In this document: positions 11,953 through 19,765 of the stretch, in pieces
How positions within the stretch are numbered: the first letter of the stretch is position 1
Layout of the letters: the number at the start of each line of letters is the position of its first letter
Assembly: GCF_003574315.2 (NCBI RefSeq)
Contig: NZ_AP025739.1
Location: forward strand, 3,534,001 to 3,598,000
Length of the DNA stretch: 64,000 nucleotides
DNA from: Capsulimonas corticalis
Lineage (GTDB): Bacteria > Armatimonadota > Armatimonadia > Armatimonadales > Capsulimonadaceae
Reading direction: 5' to 3'
The notes under the pieces: generated by a model
What the model saw: the letters and a program-made list of their open reading frames with translations, nothing else
Database searches by the model: none
Told to the model about the DNA's origin: nothing
Position numbers and translations under genes: made by a program

Positions 11953-13911
11953 TTATACGCCCTGACGTTCGGAAATACGATAGATTCGGGAATTATTCAT
12001 CTCGGCGACGACTTTGCGCAGCCATGTGTAGCGGCCGGAAATAAAGACGATGCTGGTGTTGCCGGGAAGCTCCACTTGCTTGACGATGTCATCGCTCAGC
12101 TCGTTATAATCGATTTCGGCCTGAAGGCGGCGCCAGGCGCTGCGCGTGTCGATCGCGAGCACATACAGAGGTTCGCCCTGCGTGTGTCGGACTTCCTTGC
12201 AGAGAAGGTACGCCGCTTCGATTTCGGGGCAGCGCGAGAGCTGCTGGCGCAGGACCGCGAGGCGCTCGGCGGCGAGGCCGTGGTGCAGGAAGCTGTCGCG
12301 GCGGTCCAGGTTGCTTCGCTCCATCTGAGCGAGCTCTTCCTGGCGGTAGGTCATCTGCGCGCGGCGCTCGTATTCGCTGGCGCGGGCGTGCTGGCCGCGC
12401 CCACGATAAAAGGCGGCGATGCGCTCGCAGATATCCGGCCGCTCCTCGGGGTTCAGGCGCAGGGCGCGGTCCAGCGTCGCGGACCCCGCCTCGTCCCCAA
12501 CCTCCAGCTGCAAGTGTCCCATCAGCAGCAGCGCTCGAACATCACCGGGGAACTGAGCCAAAAGCTGCTGAAGCAGCGCGATCGCGGCGGCAGGGCCGTG
12601 GAAACGCGCCGATAGCTGAGCGCGCTCCATCTGCTCCTCGGCCGTCAGCGGGTCGGTTTGCTCCTGCTGCGCGTACATGGAAAGACGCATGCATAGCTGG
12701 CGAGCCTTGTTGTGCTGCTCGCGCCAGGGGCGGTCCACTTCACGGCGCCATTCGGTGTCGAGGACCTTGGCGAACCGATCTTCCACGCCGGCGAGGTAAC
12801 GCTCGGCGGCGCTCTCCATCACTGGCTGCGGGGCGGGCAGCGGCGGCCGGGCGCCGTCGAGCGGTCCGGCCGCGACGCCCCGGAAGCCCAGCGCCGCCAA
12901 ACGGTCGCGCAGGGCGGGGTGGGTGTCGGTGGTGTCGGTCTTCGCTTCCCAGGCCTGGCGCATCCATCCGGCGGAGCCCTGGGCGAGCGCGGCGCGCTGC
13001 TCGGCGTCGCGGAACATCATGCTGTACGGCGAGACGGTCGGCTGAACTTCGTGATCGGCGCGCCGGTAAATGGCGGGCCAGAACGCTTCCCCGAGGAACC
13101 GGCCTGAAATCGAGGTCCGCACGAGCGCTTCCGCCATCACTTGCTTGCCGGCGATATCCGCGCCGCAGCGGTCCGCCTCGTACTCGTTGGCGCGGGCCAG
13201 GACGAATGTATAGGCGTAGAAGTAGGGCGCGTACCAGAGGAAAAACGGGAGGAAGAGCAAGTTGCCGTCGAGGTTCTCCAGGAGCTGGAACCACATCTTG
13301 CGCAAACGGTAGATCCATCCGGCGAAGCGGCTATGGTTTCCGGAGATATGCGCAAGCTCGTGGGCGATGACGGCGCGAAACTGATCCGGCGGCAGCGCCT
13401 GGAGCAGCGGCAGGCCCAGGATCAGATAATTTTCGTTTTTGCCGACCAGTCCAAAGCGCGGCGCCTGGACAACGGAGGCGTTGAACTCATCGGTGAGCAA
13501 CACGCGGTCAAAGCGAGGCGCCTTCAGCTCCGCGGAAACTTCCTCCAGCATGGCGTACAGGCGCGGCGCGATCTCGCGGCGAAGTTCGGGGCCTTCGGGA
13601 GCGGCCGCCTCCACACGGAACGTGTGAACGATTGCGGCGATTACCACCAAAGTTCCAAGCAGAACGGGGAGAATCAGTTTGGCGAAGTCCACCGGGCTGT
13701 AGCTGGGATGGCGCAGGTGCAGCACCGTCCAGTACACAAAATAGAGGAGCGCGCCGACCGCGACCATCAAGGCGGCCAGAATCACAAAGATGTAGGCATA
13801 GCCGAGGGCGGCGAGGCAGGCCACTCCAAAGGAGTACCCACGCGGACTTTCCCGTGCATAGCCTTCCAAACGGCGGATCAGAGAATCGAATTTTCGCTGC
13901 GAATCGATCAT
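11953..13911 (-). CDS. Membrane-bound M48-family metalloprotease with C-terminal TPR region
   Basis: A 652-residue protein from the start at 13911 (MIDSQRKFDSL). The frame stays open upstream, but that part has no coding character and contains a likely -10 box. Membrane helices lie near residues 30-62, 78-97 and 220-240. The zinc motif HELAH (His184, Glu185, His188) and the third ligand Glu245 in ANEYEADR are intact, as in HtpX/Ste24-type proteases. The segment from about 430 to 545 carries TPR-like helices (GDVRALLLMGHLQLEVGDEAG). Such proteases handle membrane or envelope protein quality control; the target here is unknown. The last 90 residues are unrecognised. Confidence 0.85.
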   Translation of the reverse strand: MIDSQRKFDSLIRRLEGYARESPRGYSFGVACLAALGYAYIFVILAALMVAVGALLYFVYWTVLHLRHPSYSPVDFAKLILPVLLGTLVVIAAIVHTFRVEAAAPEGPELRREIAPRLYAMLEEVSAELKAPRFDRVLLTDEFNASVVQAPRFGLVGKNENYLILGLPLLQALPPDQFRAVIAHELAHISGNHSRFAGWIYRLRKMWFQLLENLDGNLLFLPFFLWYAPYFYAYTFVLARANEYEADRCGADIAGKQVMAEALVRTSISGRFLGEAFWPAIYRRADHEVQPTVSPYSMMFRDAEQRAALAQGSAGWMRQAWEAKTDTTDTHPALRDRLAALGFRGVAAGPLDGARPPLPAPQPVMESAAERYLAGVEDRFAKVLDTEWRREVDRPWREQHNKARQLCMRLSMYAQQEQTDPLTAEEQMERAQLSARFHGPAAAIALLQQLLAQFPGDVRALLLMGHLQLEVGDEAGSATLDRALRLNPEERPDICERIAAFYRGRGQHARASEYERRAQMTYRQEELAQMERSNLDRRDSFLHHGLAAERLAVLRQQLSRCPEIEAAYLLCKEVRHTQGEPLYVLAIDTRSAWRRLQAEIDYNELSDDIVKQVELPGNTSIVFISGRYTWLRKVVAEMNNSRIYRISERQGV

Positions 13912-14294
13912 CTTCGGACGATAGGCCTCAGAACATCTCCGGCTGCTTACTCTACATTCTACCATAACATTTACGGATGAAGCTTGTATGAAGAAATACA
14001 AGTAGACAAAAATCCTTTTTGATTTTTGCTACTTTGTTCCGATTGCGCTCTGCAACTTTTCCTATGAATGTGGGTCCCACTCTCCGTAAGCCAATAATTT
14101 TCGGGCGAGAACGATGGTGGAATTCACGGATCTCGGGGCTTCTGGGGATATTCCCAGTGTGGCTAAGAGACGAGCAAGCGGCAATCTGTGATACACTATT
14201 GTGTCGCGCCGCCGCTCATGTCTGATGCGCGGCCGTTGTTTTGCGAGACGTTCAGGAAGCGTCATCGCGAGTTGAAGAGAATGGAGCGGATGGA
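13912..14294. promoter_or_regulatory. Divergent intergenic region between the M48 protease and the SBP-OmpA gene
   Basis: The roughly 380 bases hold no supported gene. On the minus strand TAGAAT (plus positions 13956-13961) is a plausible -10 for the protease gene and would start transcription near 13949. On the plus side, TACACT near 14191 could serve the operon that begins at 14295; no clear -35 was seen for either. Confidence 0.4.
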
Positions 14295-16097
14295 ATGCAG
14301 CTGAAACCGTTGGGGAAAGTGATCGTTCTGATCATCTTATTGGGAGTGCTTGCCGGCGCCTGGAGAATGTGGGGCAACAAGCTCGCGCCGGGCGCGGTGA
14401 CGAAGGAGTCTGTCGCTCCCGTGAAAGTCACGCTGGGAGACGCGCCGCAGTCGGCGGCGTCGTCCAACATCAACTATGTCGCGCCCGGTTTGGGAGCCGG
14501 AGCCGCGGATAAGCCCGAAGTTCGCTTTCTTGGCTACGCCTGGAACGCGCAGATGGGCATCCTGCTGGCGAACGGCGGCGCGCAGGCCACGCAGGGCAGC
14601 CTGATGGCGAAGCATGGCGTCAACCTGAAGTGGTCCCGCCAGGACGATAACGGCAAGCTCCAGGAAGCGCTCGTCGCGTTCGCGACGGAGCTGAGCCAGG
14701 GCAACCCGCAGCCGACTAAGGGCGCGCACTTTATTACCATAATGGGCGATGGCGGCGCCGCCTTTTTGCAGGGATTGAACTCGACGCTGAAGCGCCTGGG
14801 CCCGGATTACACCGCGAAGATCGTGGATGCGGCGGGGTACTCGCGCGGCGAGGATAAGCTGATGGGCCCGGCGGAGTGGAAAGCCAACCCTTCGGCCGCT
14901 CGGGGCGGGTTCGTGGCGGGCGTTGTCCGCGACGGCGACTGGAATATCGCGCAGAAGTGGCTGGGCGATAACGGTCTGCGCACCAATCCCGACGAAAAGA
15001 CCTATGACCCGGACGCGCTGAACTGGGTCAATGCTTCGGACTATATCGACGCCGCGCAGAAGTATGTCGCGGGATATTCGGAAACGCGCCCCGTGGTGCG
15101 GAACGGCAAGCGGACCGGCGAAACCAAGACGATCACCGTCAACGGCGTCGTCACCTGGACGCCCGGCGACGTGACCGTCGCCGAGAAGAAGGGCGGACTG
15201 GTCTCGATCGTCTCGACGAAGGAGTACAGCTCGCAGATGCCGTGCGTCGTGATCGGGATCGACAAGTGGATGCGCGCCAACCGCGCCACCGTCGACGGCA
15301 TGATCGCGGCGATCGCCGAGGGCGGCGACGTCATCAAGGCAAACCCGGCGGCTTTGCAGCGCGCGTCGGAAATCAGCGCCGATCTGTATCATGAGCCCGG
15401 CGCCGGTCCCGACTTCTGGTCAAAGTACTATAAGGGCGTGACCGAAACGGACAAGACGGGCGCTCCTGTCGATCTGGGCGGCTCTTCCGTGAATAACCTC
15501 GCGGACAGCCTTCTCGCCTTCGGTTTGGTGCCGGGGTCGTCCAACCTGGTCGCGGCCACCTACACGGACTTCGGCGATCTGGTGAAGCAGCAGTATCCGG
15601 AGCTGGTTCCGACTTACCCCGCCGCCGCTTCGGTGATCGATACGTCGTATCTGAGCGATGTCGCCAAGCAGACGGCTCCGACCGCCGCCGTGATTGCGGA
15701 GACGAAACCCGTCTACAATAAGCAGAAGGCGGTGACGGCGGTTGTCGGACGGCGCAACTGGAACATCCAGTTCAACGCCGGAAAGGCGACATTCACGCCG
15801 CAGGCCAAGCAGGAGCTTCAGAAGCTGCTCCGCAGCCTGCTGATTGCGAGCGGCACGGTCGTGGAGGTTCACGGCCACACGGACAACCAGGGCAACCCGG
15901 CCACCAGCAAGCCGCTGTCGGAGGCGCGCGCCTTCGCCGTGAAGCAATGGCTGGAGGCGCAGTCGCCGGTCAACTTCCCGGAAGGACGCGTTCGTGTATT
16001 CGCTCACGGCGATACGAACCCGATCGCGCCCAATACGACCCCGGAAGGCCGGGCCAAAAACCGGCGTGTCGAGATCGTCATTGGAACGAACCAATAA
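14295..16097 (+). CDS. Periplasmic substrate-binding protein fused to an OmpA peptidoglycan-binding domain
   Basis: A 600-residue protein. The ATG at 14295 gives an N-terminal membrane anchor (MQLKPLGKVIVLIILLGVL). Residues about 65-480 resemble a type-2 ABC substrate-binding protein of the NMT1/nitrate-taurine kind. The C-terminal 115 residues are an OmpA-like domain: VHGHTDNQGNPATSKPLSEARA and AKNRRVEIVIG supply the Asp and Arg that hold diaminopimelate in this family. The protein would thus be fixed to both inner membrane and cell wall, which is unusual for a binding protein. The permease and ATPase genes follow directly, after a strong hairpin at 16112. Confidence 0.8.
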   Translation: MQLKPLGKVIVLIILLGVLAGAWRMWGNKLAPGAVTKESVAPVKVTLGDAPQSAASSNINYVAPGLGAGAADKPEVRFLGYAWNAQMGILLANGGAQATQGSLMAKHGVNLKWSRQDDNGKLQEALVAFATELSQGNPQPTKGAHFITIMGDGGAAFLQGLNSTLKRLGPDYTAKIVDAAGYSRGEDKLMGPAEWKANPSAARGGFVAGVVRDGDWNIAQKWLGDNGLRTNPDEKTYDPDALNWVNASDYIDAAQKYVAGYSETRPVVRNGKRTGETKTITVNGVVTWTPGDVTVAEKKGGLVSIVSTKEYSSQMPCVVIGIDKWMRANRATVDGMIAAIAEGGDVIKANPAALQRASEISADLYHEPGAGPDFWSKYYKGVTETDKTGAPVDLGGSSVNNLADSLLAFGLVPGSSNLVAATYTDFGDLVKQQYPELVPTYPAAASVIDTSYLSDVAKQTAPTAAVIAETKPVYNKQKAVTAVVGRRNWNIQFNAGKATFTPQAKQELQKLLRSLLIASGTVVEVHGHTDNQGNPATSKPLSEARAFAVKQWLEAQSPVNFPEGRVRVFAHGDTNPIAPNTTPEGRAKNRRVEIVIGTNQ

Positions 16098-16111
16098 AGG
16101 AGTTCGGGGAG

Positions 16112-16141
16112 ACGGCGCCGGGGAAACCCGGCGCCGTTGTT
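16112..16141 (+). terminator. Strong intra-operon hairpin (attenuator or processing site)
   Basis: ACGGCGCCGGG at 16112-16122 pairs perfectly with CCCGGCGCCGT at 16127-16137 across a GAAA loop and is followed by TGTTCTTA. It sits between the binding-protein gene and the permease gene. It may let more of the first gene be made than of the transporter, as is common for binding-protein operons. Confidence 0.65.
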
Positions 16142-16178
16142 CTTATACTCGGATTGGATCGCTGATAGGAAATTTCGA

Positions 16179-17081
16179 ATGAACGAATCTGATGCTAGTC
16201 AAACCCCGGCCGCGCCGGAACCCATTCTCGCCGGCGCTCCGGGAAATGGGAAGATCCCGCAGGGCGATCTTGGCCCCCGGCAGCGCTCGCGGCGCTGGGA
16301 CGCCTTCGCAGCCTTTATGCCCAATCGCCTCGTTTCCGCCGCGACGATGCGGCTGATCGTCTTTGTCGAGCTCGCCGCCGCCTTGCTGGTCTGGGTGATG
16401 TCCCCGTTTAAGGTGCTGCCAAGGCCCGACGAGACCCTGCGCGCGCTGCAAACGCTCTGGATGGGGCAGGGGCTGGGACAGGAGCTAGGAACAAGCTTTA
16501 AGCTCAACGTGGAAGCGCTGCTCTGGTCCAGCGTGATCTCGCTTCTGCTGGCGTACAGCACGGTGCTGCCGGTCTTCCGGCCGATCGTCACCGCGATTTC
16601 CAAGGGACGATTCCTGAGCATCGTGGGTTTCACCTTTATCTTCACGCTGATCTTCGGCGGAGGACATCCGTTAAAGCTCTCGCTGCTGGTGTTCAGCATT
16701 ACCGTATTTTATGTGACCTCCATGGCCGCGGTGATCGCGGCCATTCCGAAGGGCGACTTCGACCACGCCCGCACTCTGCGCATGCGCGAGTGGCGCGTCG
16801 TATGGGAGGTTGTCATTCTGGGGACCGCCGATAAGGCGTTCGAAGTGCTGCGCCAGAACGCGGCGATGGGATGGATGATGCTGACGATGGTCGAAGGGAT
16901 CGTGCGCAGTGAAGGCGGCGTCGGCGCGATGCTGCTCGGCGAAAGTAAGCACTTCCTGCTGCCCGAGGTGTTCGCCATTCAGATCGTGATCCTGCTCATG
17001 GGCATGGTCCAGGATTACGCCATCGGCGCCGCCCGGCGGCTTGCGTGTCCCTATGCCGATTTGACCCTGGAGAGAAAGTAA
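16179..17081 (+). CDS. ABC transporter permease (TauC/SsuC-like)
   Basis: A 300-residue inner-membrane protein. The start at 16179 follows ATAGGAAATTTCGA. A Pro/Ala-rich cytosolic N-terminus of about 65 residues precedes roughly six membrane helices (LIVFVELAAALLVWVM; LLWSSVISLLLAYST; FLSIVGFTFIFTLIF and later ones). The loop MREWRVVWEVVILGTADKAF corresponds to the EAA-type coupling helix of BPD permeases. It ends one base before the ATPase ATG, so the pair is coupled. With the binding protein upstream it should form a complete importer, or a transporter-derived envelope machine; the substrate is unknown. Confidence 0.75.
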   Translation: MNESDASQTPAAPEPILAGAPGNGKIPQGDLGPRQRSRRWDAFAAFMPNRLVSAATMRLIVFVELAAALLVWVMSPFKVLPRPDETLRALQTLWMGQGLGQELGTSFKLNVEALLWSSVISLLLAYSTVLPVFRPIVTAISKGRFLSIVGFTFIFTLIFGGGHPLKLSLLVFSITVFYVTSMAAVIAAIPKGDFDHARTLRMREWRVVWEVVILGTADKAFEVLRQNAAMGWMMLTMVEGIVRSEGGVGAMLLGESKHFLLPEVFAIQIVILLMGMVQDYAIGAARRLACPYADLTLERK

Positions 17082-17082
17082 C

Positions 17083-17910
17083 ATGAGTCCCATCGCTTAC
17101 GAATACCGCGATACGCTTCTCAAACTGGAGAACGTCTCCCTGACGCTGGGCGGCAACACCATCCTGCGGGATGTGAACCTGGAGATCAAGGATCTGCATC
17201 GCCCCGGATACACGCAGGGGCAGGTCGTGGCGCTGCTGGGACCGTCGGGCGTCGGCAAAACGTGTTTGTTTCGGATCCTCGCCGGTCTCGACAAGCCCGA
17301 CTGCGGGCAGGTGCTGGTGGAGCAGGAGCAGATCCCCGTGCAGCGGGGCATGGTGGGCGTTATCGCGCAGCACTATCCGCTGTTCGCGCACCGCACCGTA
17401 CGCGGGAATTTGGGCGTCGCCGGCAAGCAAGCCGGGCTGTCGTCCGCCGAAATCACACAGCGGTCCACCGATATCCTGGCCCGGTTTGGCCTGGAGGAAC
17501 ACGGGAGCAAATACCCGGCGCAGCTCTCCGGCGGCCAGCGCCAGCGTGTGGCGATCGCCCAGCAATTTATGTGCTCCGAGCACTTCTTATTGATGGACGA
17601 ACCGTTTTCAGGGCTCGATATGGTGGCCGTGGATCGCGTGATCGGATTTATCCGCGAGATGGCGGCGTCGGATGAACTCAAGACGTTCATTCTCGTGACG
17701 CACGACGTGGACGCCGCGCTTCGCGTGGCCGATACCGTCTGGCTGCTTGGCCGCGATCGGGACGAAAAAGGCAATATCGTCCCCGGCGCGCGCATCCAGG
17801 CGACGTACAATCTGGCCGACTGCGGCCTGGCGTGGCGGGACGAACCCGAGAACATGCCCGAATTCGCCGAGCTGCGCAGGGAAGTCTGCGCGGCGTTCCG
17901 GAACCTTTAA
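17083..17910 (+). CDS. ABC transporter ATP-binding subunit of the SBP-OmpA system
   Basis: A 275-residue cytosolic ATPase with Walker A GPSGVGKTCL, Q-loop IAQHYPLFAHRTV, signature LSGGQRQRVAIAQQF, Walker B FLLMDEPFSGLDMV and H-loop LVTHDVDAALRVAD, all intact. It starts one base after the permease stop. Its order resembles nitrate/taurine-type ATPases, but the N-terminus (MSPIAYEYRDTLLKLENV) and the tail after the H-loop are longer than usual. It should energise the 16179 permease. Confidence 0.88.
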   Translation: MSPIAYEYRDTLLKLENVSLTLGGNTILRDVNLEIKDLHRPGYTQGQVVALLGPSGVGKTCLFRILAGLDKPDCGQVLVEQEQIPVQRGMVGVIAQHYPLFAHRTVRGNLGVAGKQAGLSSAEITQRSTDILARFGLEEHGSKYPAQLSGGQRQRVAIAQQFMCSEHFLLMDEPFSGLDMVAVDRVIGFIREMAASDELKTFILVTHDVDAALRVADTVWLLGRDRDEKGNIVPGARIQATYNLADCGLAWRDEPENMPEFAELRREVCAAFRNL

Positions 17911-17981
17911 CTTCCACCACGAGGCGTTTTCACGCGGTTTGCGGCGATCGCGACGCGATTTTCGGGAGTCGCGTGAAGATG

Positions 17982-18011
17982 CGGAGCAAAAGCTCCGGTA
18001 TAATAGTGTTA
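17982..18011 (+). promoter_or_regulatory. Internal promoter placing +1 on the start codon (leaderless), with operator-like hairpin
   Basis: TATAAT occupies 17999-18004. A start seven bases downstream falls exactly on the A of the ATG at 18011. The only Shine-Dalgarno-like text upstream is buried in a perfect inverted repeat, CGGAGCaaaaGCTCCG at 17982-17997, lying in the spacer. A second repeat, CGCGAC/GTCGCG, is just upstream. The -35 is weak. Confidence 0.55.
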
Positions 18012-18916
18012 TGGCTCAGGTCAATCGTTTTTCAGAAGCGCTCAAGGAAGGGGCGAACCTCGTCGGCCTCGCCAGCGCCAGCGCCCTTTCCGTCGCCCTG
18101 CTTTCTCCGCTTCCCATCCTGGTCGGTCTCGCCGCCGAGGCGGCCTACCTTCTGTTCATCCCCGACACCAAGTGGTACGGCGGCCGGCTGGCGCAGCGCG
18201 AGGAGACCGCGCGCCGCCGGCGCAGCCAGCAGTTCCGCGTTGAGACTCTGCCGCAATTGCAGGAAGACACGCAGGCGCGTTTCACGCATCTGGAGCTTGT
18301 GCAGGGACAGATCTACGCCCAGGCGCAGACGGATCAAAAGTGGTTTGGCGAGATGCTGCGCAAGCTCGACTTTCTGCTGGAAAAGTTTCTGATCTTCGCG
18401 CTCAAAGAGCTTCATTTCCGAAACTACCTGCTTTCGATCTGGGAAGAGTGCCAGTCCGATCGCTCGCGCCCGTCGAATGACATCGGCCGCCAGCGTTCGT
18501 CCGGCGGCGGGCGGCCGAATAACTTCGCTTCCTCGCGCTTTTCCGGTCCTCCCGTCGAGTGGGTTCCCCGGGTTGTGAAGGATGTCCAGGGCTCTTATGA
18601 CGGCGATATGGAAAATCTGACCCGCCTGCGCGACGACGAATCCGATCTGAACACCAAGGCGGTCCTGGAGAAGCGCATCGACGTGCTGAAACAGCGCCAT
18701 GAATTCGTGGGCAAGATCGGGCGGATTTTGACGAACCTGAACTACCAGATGGAATTACTGGAGGACACGTTCGGCCTGATCAACGATCAGATCCGCGCCC
18801 GCTCGCCCGAGCAGGTGCTGTCGGACATTGAGGGCGTGGTTTATCAGACGGAGTCCATGACTCAGCTCTTGGATGAGCTGGCCCCGTTTGAGCAGATGAC
18901 GGCGGGTGTTGGGTAA
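18011..18916 (+). CDS. Membrane-anchored coiled-coil protein of the SBP-OmpA cluster, unknown function
   Basis: A 301-residue protein. The start at 18011 is set by the protein (MAQVNRFSEALKE) and by the promoter box six bases before it. Two close hydrophobic segments at about residues 16-50 (LVGLASASALSVALLSPLPI; VGLAAEAAYLLFI) form a membrane hairpin. The remainder is charged and helical with probable coiled coils (residues 65-135 and 195-260); a Ser/Arg/Gly-rich linker lies near 150-175. No enzyme motif is visible. A vague likeness to membrane-hairpin proteins of tellurite/anion-resistance clusters was noted but cannot be supported. It follows the transporter genes and precedes another helical protein in the same direction. 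Confidence 0.6.
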   Translation: MAQVNRFSEALKEGANLVGLASASALSVALLSPLPILVGLAAEAAYLLFIPDTKWYGGRLAQREETARRRRSQQFRVETLPQLQEDTQARFTHLELVQGQIYAQAQTDQKWFGEMLRKLDFLLEKFLIFALKELHFRNYLLSIWEECQSDRSRPSNDIGRQRSSGGGRPNNFASSRFSGPPVEWVPRVVKDVQGSYDGDMENLTRLRDDESDLNTKAVLEKRIDVLKQRHEFVGKIGRILTNLNYQMELLEDTFGLINDQIRARSPEQVLSDIEGVVYQTESMTQLLDELAPFEQMTAGVG

Positions 18917-18966
18917 CGCGCCGGTAACGGCGCAGGCGCCCGCAATGAGAGAGGGCAGAATCACGC

Positions 18967-19668
18967 ATGGATTTTCGAGAAAAATTGCGGAAGGTGGCGT
19001 CCCTGGTCGTGGAGCTGCCGCCCGAATCGGTAACGCACAGTCCGGCAAGCGGCCACGATCCGTCGGACCCGTACGCCGCGATTGACGCGCAGCTTTCGGG
19101 AACCGCGCCTCCGCCGCTGCCGTCGCGAACGGTGGAGCAGCTGGTCGCGCAGTCGGAAGGGCCGAGCCTGGAGGCCGTTCAGGAAGCGGCGTCCGCCATC
19201 CCGACATCGCCGGGAGAGCCCGAACTGCTGTCATTTCCGGAGATCTACCGGCAGGCGGGCGTGCCCGCCGCGCCGTTCACCGCCGAGCAGATGCTGGACA
19301 TGCTGTCGTCCATGCCCGCGTCATTGCCGCTGGACATTCGCCGTCAAACGATCGGCGTCACGCTCAGCGCGATGGGGAAAGCCATCGGCGCGACCCCCGA
19401 CACCATCGTCGCCGACGCCTCGCGCAAGCTCGCCGCCCTTGCGTCCTACGCCGACACCGTCGCCGCCCATACGGCGGCGTTCACGGCCAGCGCCGATCAG
19501 GAGATCGCCGAGCTTCAGCTTGAGATCGACCGCAAGAAGCGCGCGATCGAGACGGCCCGGCAGAACCAGATTGAGGTGGCGCAGTTGTGCCACAATGAGA
19601 CGGATCGCCTGGACGACGTGCTGGAGTTTTTCAGTTTGGACATTGGGGCTTCCAAGCACGCAGGGTAG
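18967..19668 (+). CDS. Soluble helical protein of the SBP-OmpA cluster, unknown function
   Basis: A 233-residue protein without signal peptide or membrane segment. After a Pro/Ser-rich first 85 residues comes a helical domain (FPEIYRQAGVPAAPFTAEQM; IRRQTIGVTLSAMGKAIGAT). A C-terminal coiled coil then spans about 165-220 (IAELQLEIDRKKRAIETAR). No family was recognised. It lies 50 bases after the membrane coiled-coil gene and ahead of a strong terminator, so it is the last gene of the cluster. Pairing of two coiled-coil proteins with an ABC module suggests a structural or sensing role; this is inference. Confidence 0.6.
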   Translation: MDFREKLRKVASLVVELPPESVTHSPASGHDPSDPYAAIDAQLSGTAPPPLPSRTVEQLVAQSEGPSLEAVQEAASAIPTSPGEPELLSFPEIYRQAGVPAAPFTAEQMLDMLSSMPASLPLDIRRQTIGVTLSAMGKAIGATPDTIVADASRKLAALASYADTVAAHTAAFTASADQEIAELQLEIDRKKRAIETARQNQIEVAQLCHNETDRLDDVLEFFSLDIGASKHAG

Positions 19669-19716: not shown

Positions 19717-19765
19717 AAAAGAAAATGGCCCATCACTCAATCAAAGTGATGGGCCATTTTCTTTT
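19717..19765. terminator. Perfect 21-bp bidirectional terminator
   Basis: Bases 19717-19737 are exactly complementary to 19745-19765 around a 7-base loop, with A4 and T4 runs on the two flanks. It ends the SBP-OmpA operon on the plus strand and the lipoprotein gene on the minus strand. Confidence 0.92.

What the first reader, a model, noticed from the sequence alone, without database searches (positions are those of the whole stretch)
14295..19668. Five-gene envelope cluster: binding protein fused to OmpA, permease, ATPase and two coiled-coil proteins
A TauA/NMT1-like binding domain with an N-terminal membrane anchor and a C-terminal OmpA peptidoglycan-binding domain is coupled to an intact permease/ATPase pair. 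Two unrecognised coiled-coil proteins follow, one with a membrane hairpin. Freely diffusing binding proteins normally work best; fixing one to the wall suggests signal or force transmission, or local capture, rather than simple uptake. The cluster ends in a perfect 21-bp terminator, so it looks like a complete unit.
Basis: partly seen in the sequence, partly recalled or inferred. Interest (0 to 1): 0.72.

Follow-up and report, generated by a model that had tools for sequence, protein, structure and literature searches.

The report
Wall-tethered transporter with coiled-coil partners
Five neighbouring genes encode a membrane pump whose solute-catching protein is clamped to the cell wall, plus two coiled-coil partner proteins; the same five-part set recurs across a bacterial phylum and in some of the largest known bacterial viruses, so it is a real working unit whose job can now be tested.

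Summary
In detail: five intact genes (14295-19668, +) and a perfect 21-bp terminator. g1 is an inner-membrane helix, a TauA/NrtA/SsuA-fold binding domain and an OmpA domain with invariant Asp530/Arg545. g2-g3 are a diverged TauC-like permease and an ATPase with intact motifs. g4 (membrane hairpin) and g5 match no curated family.

In 291 Armatimonadota genomes, 28 of 29 with g1 also carry g4 and g5; the 29th contig ends inside g4. g4-g5 also accompany a second, NMT1-type OmpA fusion transporter (type B).

The same five-part plan occurs in huge phages: Bacillus phage G (gp243-gp250), Prevotella Lak phages, a 735-kb and a 462-kb phage, and many IMG/VR contigs. In phage G the membrane coiled coil gp247 is PspA/Snf7-like (profile probability 97%) and gp246 belongs to the g5 family (98%).

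A binding-protein/OmpA fusion with ABC genes in PspA/Snf7 operons was already described (Ravi et al. 2024). The Armatimonadota unit, the g4 and g5 families and the phage units add to that.

Best reading: a wall-tethered small-solute importer embedded in a Psp/ESCRT-III-like membrane-maintenance system. Substrate and function are untested.

The parts
14295..16097 (+). g1: inner-membrane helix (model residues 5-30), TauA/NrtA-fold binding domain (about 70-450), OmpA peptidoglycan-binding domain (about 490-598)
16179..17081 (+). g2: diverged TauC-like ABC permease (BPD_transp_1 E 0.0064; TauC model E 4.8e-6, both under the curated cut-offs)
17083..17910 (+). g3: ABC ATPase; Walker A GPSGVGKT, signature LSGGQRQR, Walker B and H-loop intact
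18011..18916 (+). g4: membrane hairpin plus long helices; family with no Pfam, NCBIfam or PDB relative found
18967..19668 (+). g5: soluble helical domain plus coiled coil; same family as phage G gp246 and related to other jumbo-phage small coiled coils
19717..19765 (.). perfect 21-bp inverted repeat with 7-base loop (terminator of the unit)

Best explanation
The unit encodes an ABC importer of the taurine/nitrate type whose binding protein is fixed between the inner membrane and the wall, together with two coiled-coil partners that hold the transporter in, and help maintain, a patch of inner membrane. Shown here: the domain order of g1, intact ATPase motifs, the invariant peptidoglycan-binding pair, the near-obligate linkage of g4 and g5, the PspA/Snf7-like nature of the phage G equivalent (gp247), and PspA genes joined to the cluster in some relatives. 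Inferred: g1's N-terminal helix sits in the inner membrane while the OmpA domain grips diaminopimelate peptides, so the binding domain stays next to the permease; a small solute is captured near the wall and imported by a g2 dimer driven by g3; g4 lies in the membrane with its helices in the cytoplasm, g5 binds g4 or the ATPase there, and this scaffold couples the transporter to Psp-type membrane upkeep. Phages may carry it to keep the envelope of a long-infected cell intact or fed.
For: Fold of g1; OmpA D530/R545 invariant in 31 rows, spaced 15 residues, with matches to DAP-bound structures 3td4/3td5; intact ATPase motifs in bacteria and phages; g4 and g5 in 28 of 29 g1 genomes, Fisher p about 1e-26, with conserved order g1-g2-g3-g4-g5 or g4-g5-g1-g2-g3; same order with a second, NMT1-OmpA set; PspA genes downstream of g5 in L026, L029 and L094 and beside g4 in L093 and L122; gp247 family ~ PspA probability 96.9% with low coiled-coil background; published PspA/Snf7 link.
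Against: No substrate, transport or membrane effect is known. g4 itself shows no profile relation to PspA or to the phage equivalents and no PDB match, so the Psp link for the window unit rests on neighbourhood and position. The permease is strongly diverged, which would also fit a non-transport role. None of the five window genes is PspA or AAA+.
Confidence: 0.42

Rival explanations
1. Not a transporter but a transmission device, as in FtsEX: binding of a wall- or stress-derived ligand by the tethered domain gates the ATPase, and the ATP cycle drives assembly or disassembly of the coiled-coil (PspA/Snf7-like) layer on the inner membrane.
For: Wall tether; diverged permease; obligate coiled-coil partners; PspA/Snf7-like partner in phage G; Ravi et al. 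note that it is unknown how PspA without an AAA+ ATPase is regulated.
Against: Binding-domain residues are among the most conserved of g1, as for a ligand pocket feeding a permease; the fold relatives are mostly solute-uptake proteins.
Confidence: 0.25
2. An ordinary nutrient importer; g4 and g5 are only assembly or stability factors for a tethered ABC transporter and have no membrane-remodelling role.
For: Fold and ATPase are those of a normal importer; g4/g5 accompany two different transporter sets, as a general accessory would.
Against: g4 also occurs beside membrane-anchored binding proteins without permease or ATPase (L091, L092) and with PspA (L093, L094, L122), so it is not only a transporter chaperone.
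Confidence: 0.18
3. A phage-born envelope module (for example blocking competing phages or keeping the infected cell intact) taken over by Armatimonadota.
For: Type A units in a 462-kb phage and in IMG/VR contigs; in a tree rooted with type B, the bacterial type A sequences form one clade (100/100, with viral contig L034 inside) among several phage lineages; some carriers hold a T4-like capsid protein and terminase.
Against: Only Armatimonadota could be searched among bacteria, so the nesting may be a sampling effect; long branches meet at the root; the ORFs beside the window genes look chromosomal, not prophage (read by eye).
Confidence: 0.1

Closest known systems
PBPB-OmpA + ABC operons with PspA/Snf7 (Ravi et al. 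2024, PMC11237479, example OGG56892.1)
   Same: Solute-binding domain fused to OmpA, ABC ATPase and permease, linked to PspA/Snf7 proteins with a TM segment; same proposed link of transport and membrane remodelling
   Different: The five window genes include no PspA and no AAA+; the two coiled-coil proteins are g4 (not PspA by profile) and g5; in the passages read, no family like g5 and no phage unit is named
Bacillus phage G gp243-gp250 and Lak / huge-phage units
   Same: Permease, ATPase, g5-type small coiled coil, membrane coiled coil, OmpA-fused binding protein
   Different: Binding domain is type B (NMT1-like) in phage G, Lak and the 735-kb phage; membrane partner is gp247 (PspA/Snf7-like) or family A5, not g4; gene order differs
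NitT/TauT importers (TauABC, SsuABC, NrtABCD)
   Same: Binding-protein fold, ATPase motifs, one permease gene
   Different: Binding protein is membrane- and wall-anchored, permease diverged, two extra coiled-coil partners
TelA/VWA cluster of Vibrio plasmid pSEA2 with 'phosphate ABC transporter substrate-binding/OmpA family protein'
   Same: OmpA-fused binding protein, ABC ATPase and permease, a hairpin coiled coil, a second helical protein
   Different: Partner is TelA (PF05816 E 4e-50) plus a VWA protein; g4 and g5 do not match TelA

Membership tests
NitT/TauT-type ABC importer | Type II periplasmic binding-protein fold like TauA/NrtA | tested here: met
   Model of g1 vs PDB: TauA TM 0.72, NrtA and CmpA TM about 0.6
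NitT/TauT-type ABC importer | ATPase with Walker A, signature, Walker B and H-loop | tested here: met
NitT/TauT-type ABC importer | Permease of family BPD_transp_1 (PF00528) above cut-off | tested here: inconclusive
   E 0.0064, 16.7 bits against a cut-off of 26.4; TauC model E 4.8e-6, under cut-off
NitT/TauT-type ABC importer | Imports a sulfonate, nitrate or similar small solute | not testable with these tools
   needs biochemistry
OmpA-like peptidoglycan-binding domain | PF00691 above cut-off and conserved Asp/Arg 15 residues apart | tested here: met
   64.7 bits against 27.2; D530 and R545 invariant in 31 rows
OmpA-like peptidoglycan-binding domain | Binds DAP peptides | not testable with these tools
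   fold match to DAP-bound 3td4/3td5 only
PspA/Snf7-linked PBPB-OmpA operon (Ravi et al. 2024) | Binding protein-OmpA fusion with ABC ATPase and permease | tested here: met
PspA/Snf7-linked PBPB-OmpA operon (Ravi et al. 2024) | PspA or Snf7 homologue in the operon | tested here: not met
   Window: g4 vs PspA profile probability 0.1%, g5 1.2%. Relatives L026, L029 and L094 do carry PspA; phage gp247 does match
PspA/Snf7-linked PBPB-OmpA operon (Ravi et al. 2024) | Associated AAA+ ATPase | tested here: inconclusive
   None of the five genes is AAA+; wider neighbours in the window were read as ORFs only
TelA / toxic anion resistance | PF05816 match in a partner protein | tested here: not met
   No TelA match among the hits shown for g4 or g5; the Vibrio plasmid partner does match

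The most novel reading that the evidence does not exclude
An ABC-powered, wall-anchored ESCRT-III/Psp-like membrane machine that is a standing part of some of the largest phages and was taken over by Armatimonadota: the transporter's ATP cycle, gated by a wall-near ligand, remodels the coiled-coil layer, and g5 is the dedicated coupling factor.
Probability: 0.15. Interest if true: 0.87.

Novelty: new variant of a known kind. Interest (0 to 1): 0.62.

Why it matters
Some of the largest phages (phage G, Lak, a 735-kb phage) carry a complete envelope transporter with PspA/Snf7-like or similar membrane coiled coils and g5-type partners, and a bacterial phylum keeps the same plan. g5 gives a single handle, testable in laboratory phage and bacterial systems, on how PspA/Snf7-like proteins without an AAA+ motor may be coupled to ATP use and to the wall, which Ravi et al. 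state as an open question. It would also give a function to an unexplained gene block of the largest phages.

Tried and rejected
Curated families for g4 and g5: Pfam, NCBIfam and PHROGs gave nothing convincing. The apparent PDB hits of the g5 profile to TAL effectors come from short (about 26-residue) repeated matches with no stretch passing alone, and were dismissed as repeat artefacts. g4 fold search against PDB and viral models: best E about 0.25-0.5, nothing usable. Homology of g4 to the phage membrane coiled coils or to PspA: not detected. TelA identity for g4/g5: rejected. Type A in plasmids: only matches to the C-terminal, OmpA-bearing part. Literature searches for phage-borne units found none in the open library; this library lacks most subscription journals.

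Full report
What is there. The window lies in a 7.65-Mb single-contig genome; a near relative is a Capsulimonas MAG, Armatimonadota. Five genes in the same direction, 14295-19668, are intact and end in a perfect 21-bp inverted repeat. g1 has OmpA (PF00691, E 1e-17) at its end. With 31 rows its model reaches pLDDT 86; its middle part matches TauA, NrtA, CmpA and SsuA and its end the OmpA domains solved with DAP ligands. Asp530 and Arg545, spaced as in the DAP-binding pair of Acinetobacter OmpA (own knowledge), are invariant in all 31. g2 is a diverged permease, g3 an ATPase with all motifs. g4 and g5 match no curated family.

Is it a unit? Yes. g1 was sought in 291 Armatimonadota genomes, g4 and g5 likewise. 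Of 29 genomes with full-length g1, 28 have both g4 and g5; in the 29th, G024, the contig ends inside g4. Fisher p is 4e-26 for g1-g4, 5e-27 for g1-g5 and 5e-40 for g4-g5; the genomes are related, so these p-values overstate independence. But the block occurs in several families with two gene orders, g1-g2-g3-g4-g5 or g4-g5-g1-g2-g3. In G022 the g4-g5 pair lies about 57 kb away on the same contig and in G018 g4 lies on another contig. Genomes with g4 and g5 but no g1 often carry a second set (type B): an NMT1-OmpA fusion (NMT1 E 8e-9), its own permease and ATPase, then g4-g5 in the same order.

Wider company of g4. Two further g4 copies in the window's own genome sit beside a membrane-anchored SBP_bac_11-type binding protein without transporter genes (L091, L092). 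The same protein type stands next to g1 in L026, L029 and L031. PspA/IM30 genes follow g5 in L026, L029 and L094 and stand near g4 in L093 and L122. This ties the cluster, by neighbourhood, to Psp-type membrane upkeep.

Phages. A tblastn of g1 finds a 462-kb phage, LR756500, and the profile finds 23 IMG/VR loci, some on contigs of up to 529 kb. Nearly all carry g2 and g3 too, and many have a small coiled coil and a membrane coiled coil just before g1. Four records have a T4-like capsid protein, three of them also a terminase hit; the other contigs lacked these two markers and their viral status rests on IMG/VR and on their gene content. Type B fusions are in Bacillus phage G (gp249, gp250), Prevotella Lak phages and a 735-kb phage. 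In phage G, gp243 is a permease, gp245 an ATPase, gp246 matches the g5 profile (E 2.7e-13) and gp247 the PspA profile (E 8.8e-9); Pfam's own PspA model does not reach gp247 (E 0.36). Eleven IMG/VR loci carry this phage-G-type order complete (one of them phage G itself; some are near-identical contigs; one has a split fusion gene). Profile-profile: gp246 family ~ g5 98.4%, gp247 family ~ PspA 96.9%, while unrelated coiled-coil pairs give about 1%. The Lak and 735-kb membrane partners match the other phage family A5 (E 1.8e-44 and 4e-37), which is only weakly PspA-like (60%). g4 matches none of these, so it is a positional equivalent, not a shown homologue; g5 is the shared part.

How it most likely works. 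Shown: wall-binding residues, importer fold, intact ATPase motifs, obligate partners, Psp neighbourhood. Inferred: membrane helix plus OmpA grip hold the binding domain beside the permease; g4 lies in the membrane, g5 couples g4 or the ATPase in the cytoplasm; the transporter serves a maintained membrane patch. I give this 0.42; a pure transmission device 0.25; a plain importer with assembly factors 0.18; a phage-born module 0.1. In a tree with type B as outgroup the bacterial type A sequences (plus viral contig L034) form one supported clade among phage lineages; this fits phage origin, but only one bacterial phylum could be searched and long branches meet at the root.

What is known. Ravi et al. 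2024 (PMC11237479) already report PBPB-OmpA fusions with ABC genes in PspA/Snf7 operons and suggest that membrane remodelling is linked with solute transport. On a Vibrio plasmid the fusion is annotated 'phosphate ABC transporter substrate-binding/OmpA family protein' and sits beside TelA and a VWA protein. So the kind is known; new here are the Armatimonadota unit, the g4 and g5 families, and their recurrence in some of the largest phages, for which I found no statement in the open literature searched.

Noticed in passing
L091 7906-10046 and L092 8086-10311 (own genome G000:C1 about 211-213 kb and 2938-2940 kb): Two g4 paralogues each beside a membrane-anchored SBP_bac_11-like protein, with no permease or ATPase seen next to them.
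   Followed up: partly
L046, L047, L048, L050 between g1 and g2: A DNA-ligase-like gene (465 aa, read by eye) and a small outer-membrane-barrel-like gene (about 150 aa, signal peptide) are inserted inside the transporter unit in one phage lineage; the barrel-like gene is also in L052-L055.
   Followed up: no
L126 6803-10008 (phage G gp249, gp250): Two tandem paralogous binding protein-OmpA genes in phage G.
   Followed up: no
L107 2723-4546 (G137): g1 is split by in-frame TAG codons (2 TAG reported); broken copy or sequencing error.
   Followed up: no
L094 10895-12108 (G022): The SBP_bac_11-like gene before g4-g5-PspA is read in two overlapping frames, as if frameshifted.
   Followed up: no
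L093 11503-12246 and L122 3238-3954: A TonB-like small protein (read by eye) stands next to PspA and near g4 in two genomes that lack g1.
   Followed up: no
L127 4792-14154 (Vibrio plasmid pSEA2): OmpA-fused binding protein together with VWA protein, TelA and a hairpin coiled coil: a parallel version of the unit with TelA as partner.
   Followed up: partly
window 11953-14001, - strand: Divergent neighbour of g1: a protein with an HELAH motif (M48-peptidase-like) and a helical, TPR-like tail; not searched against families.
   Followed up: no
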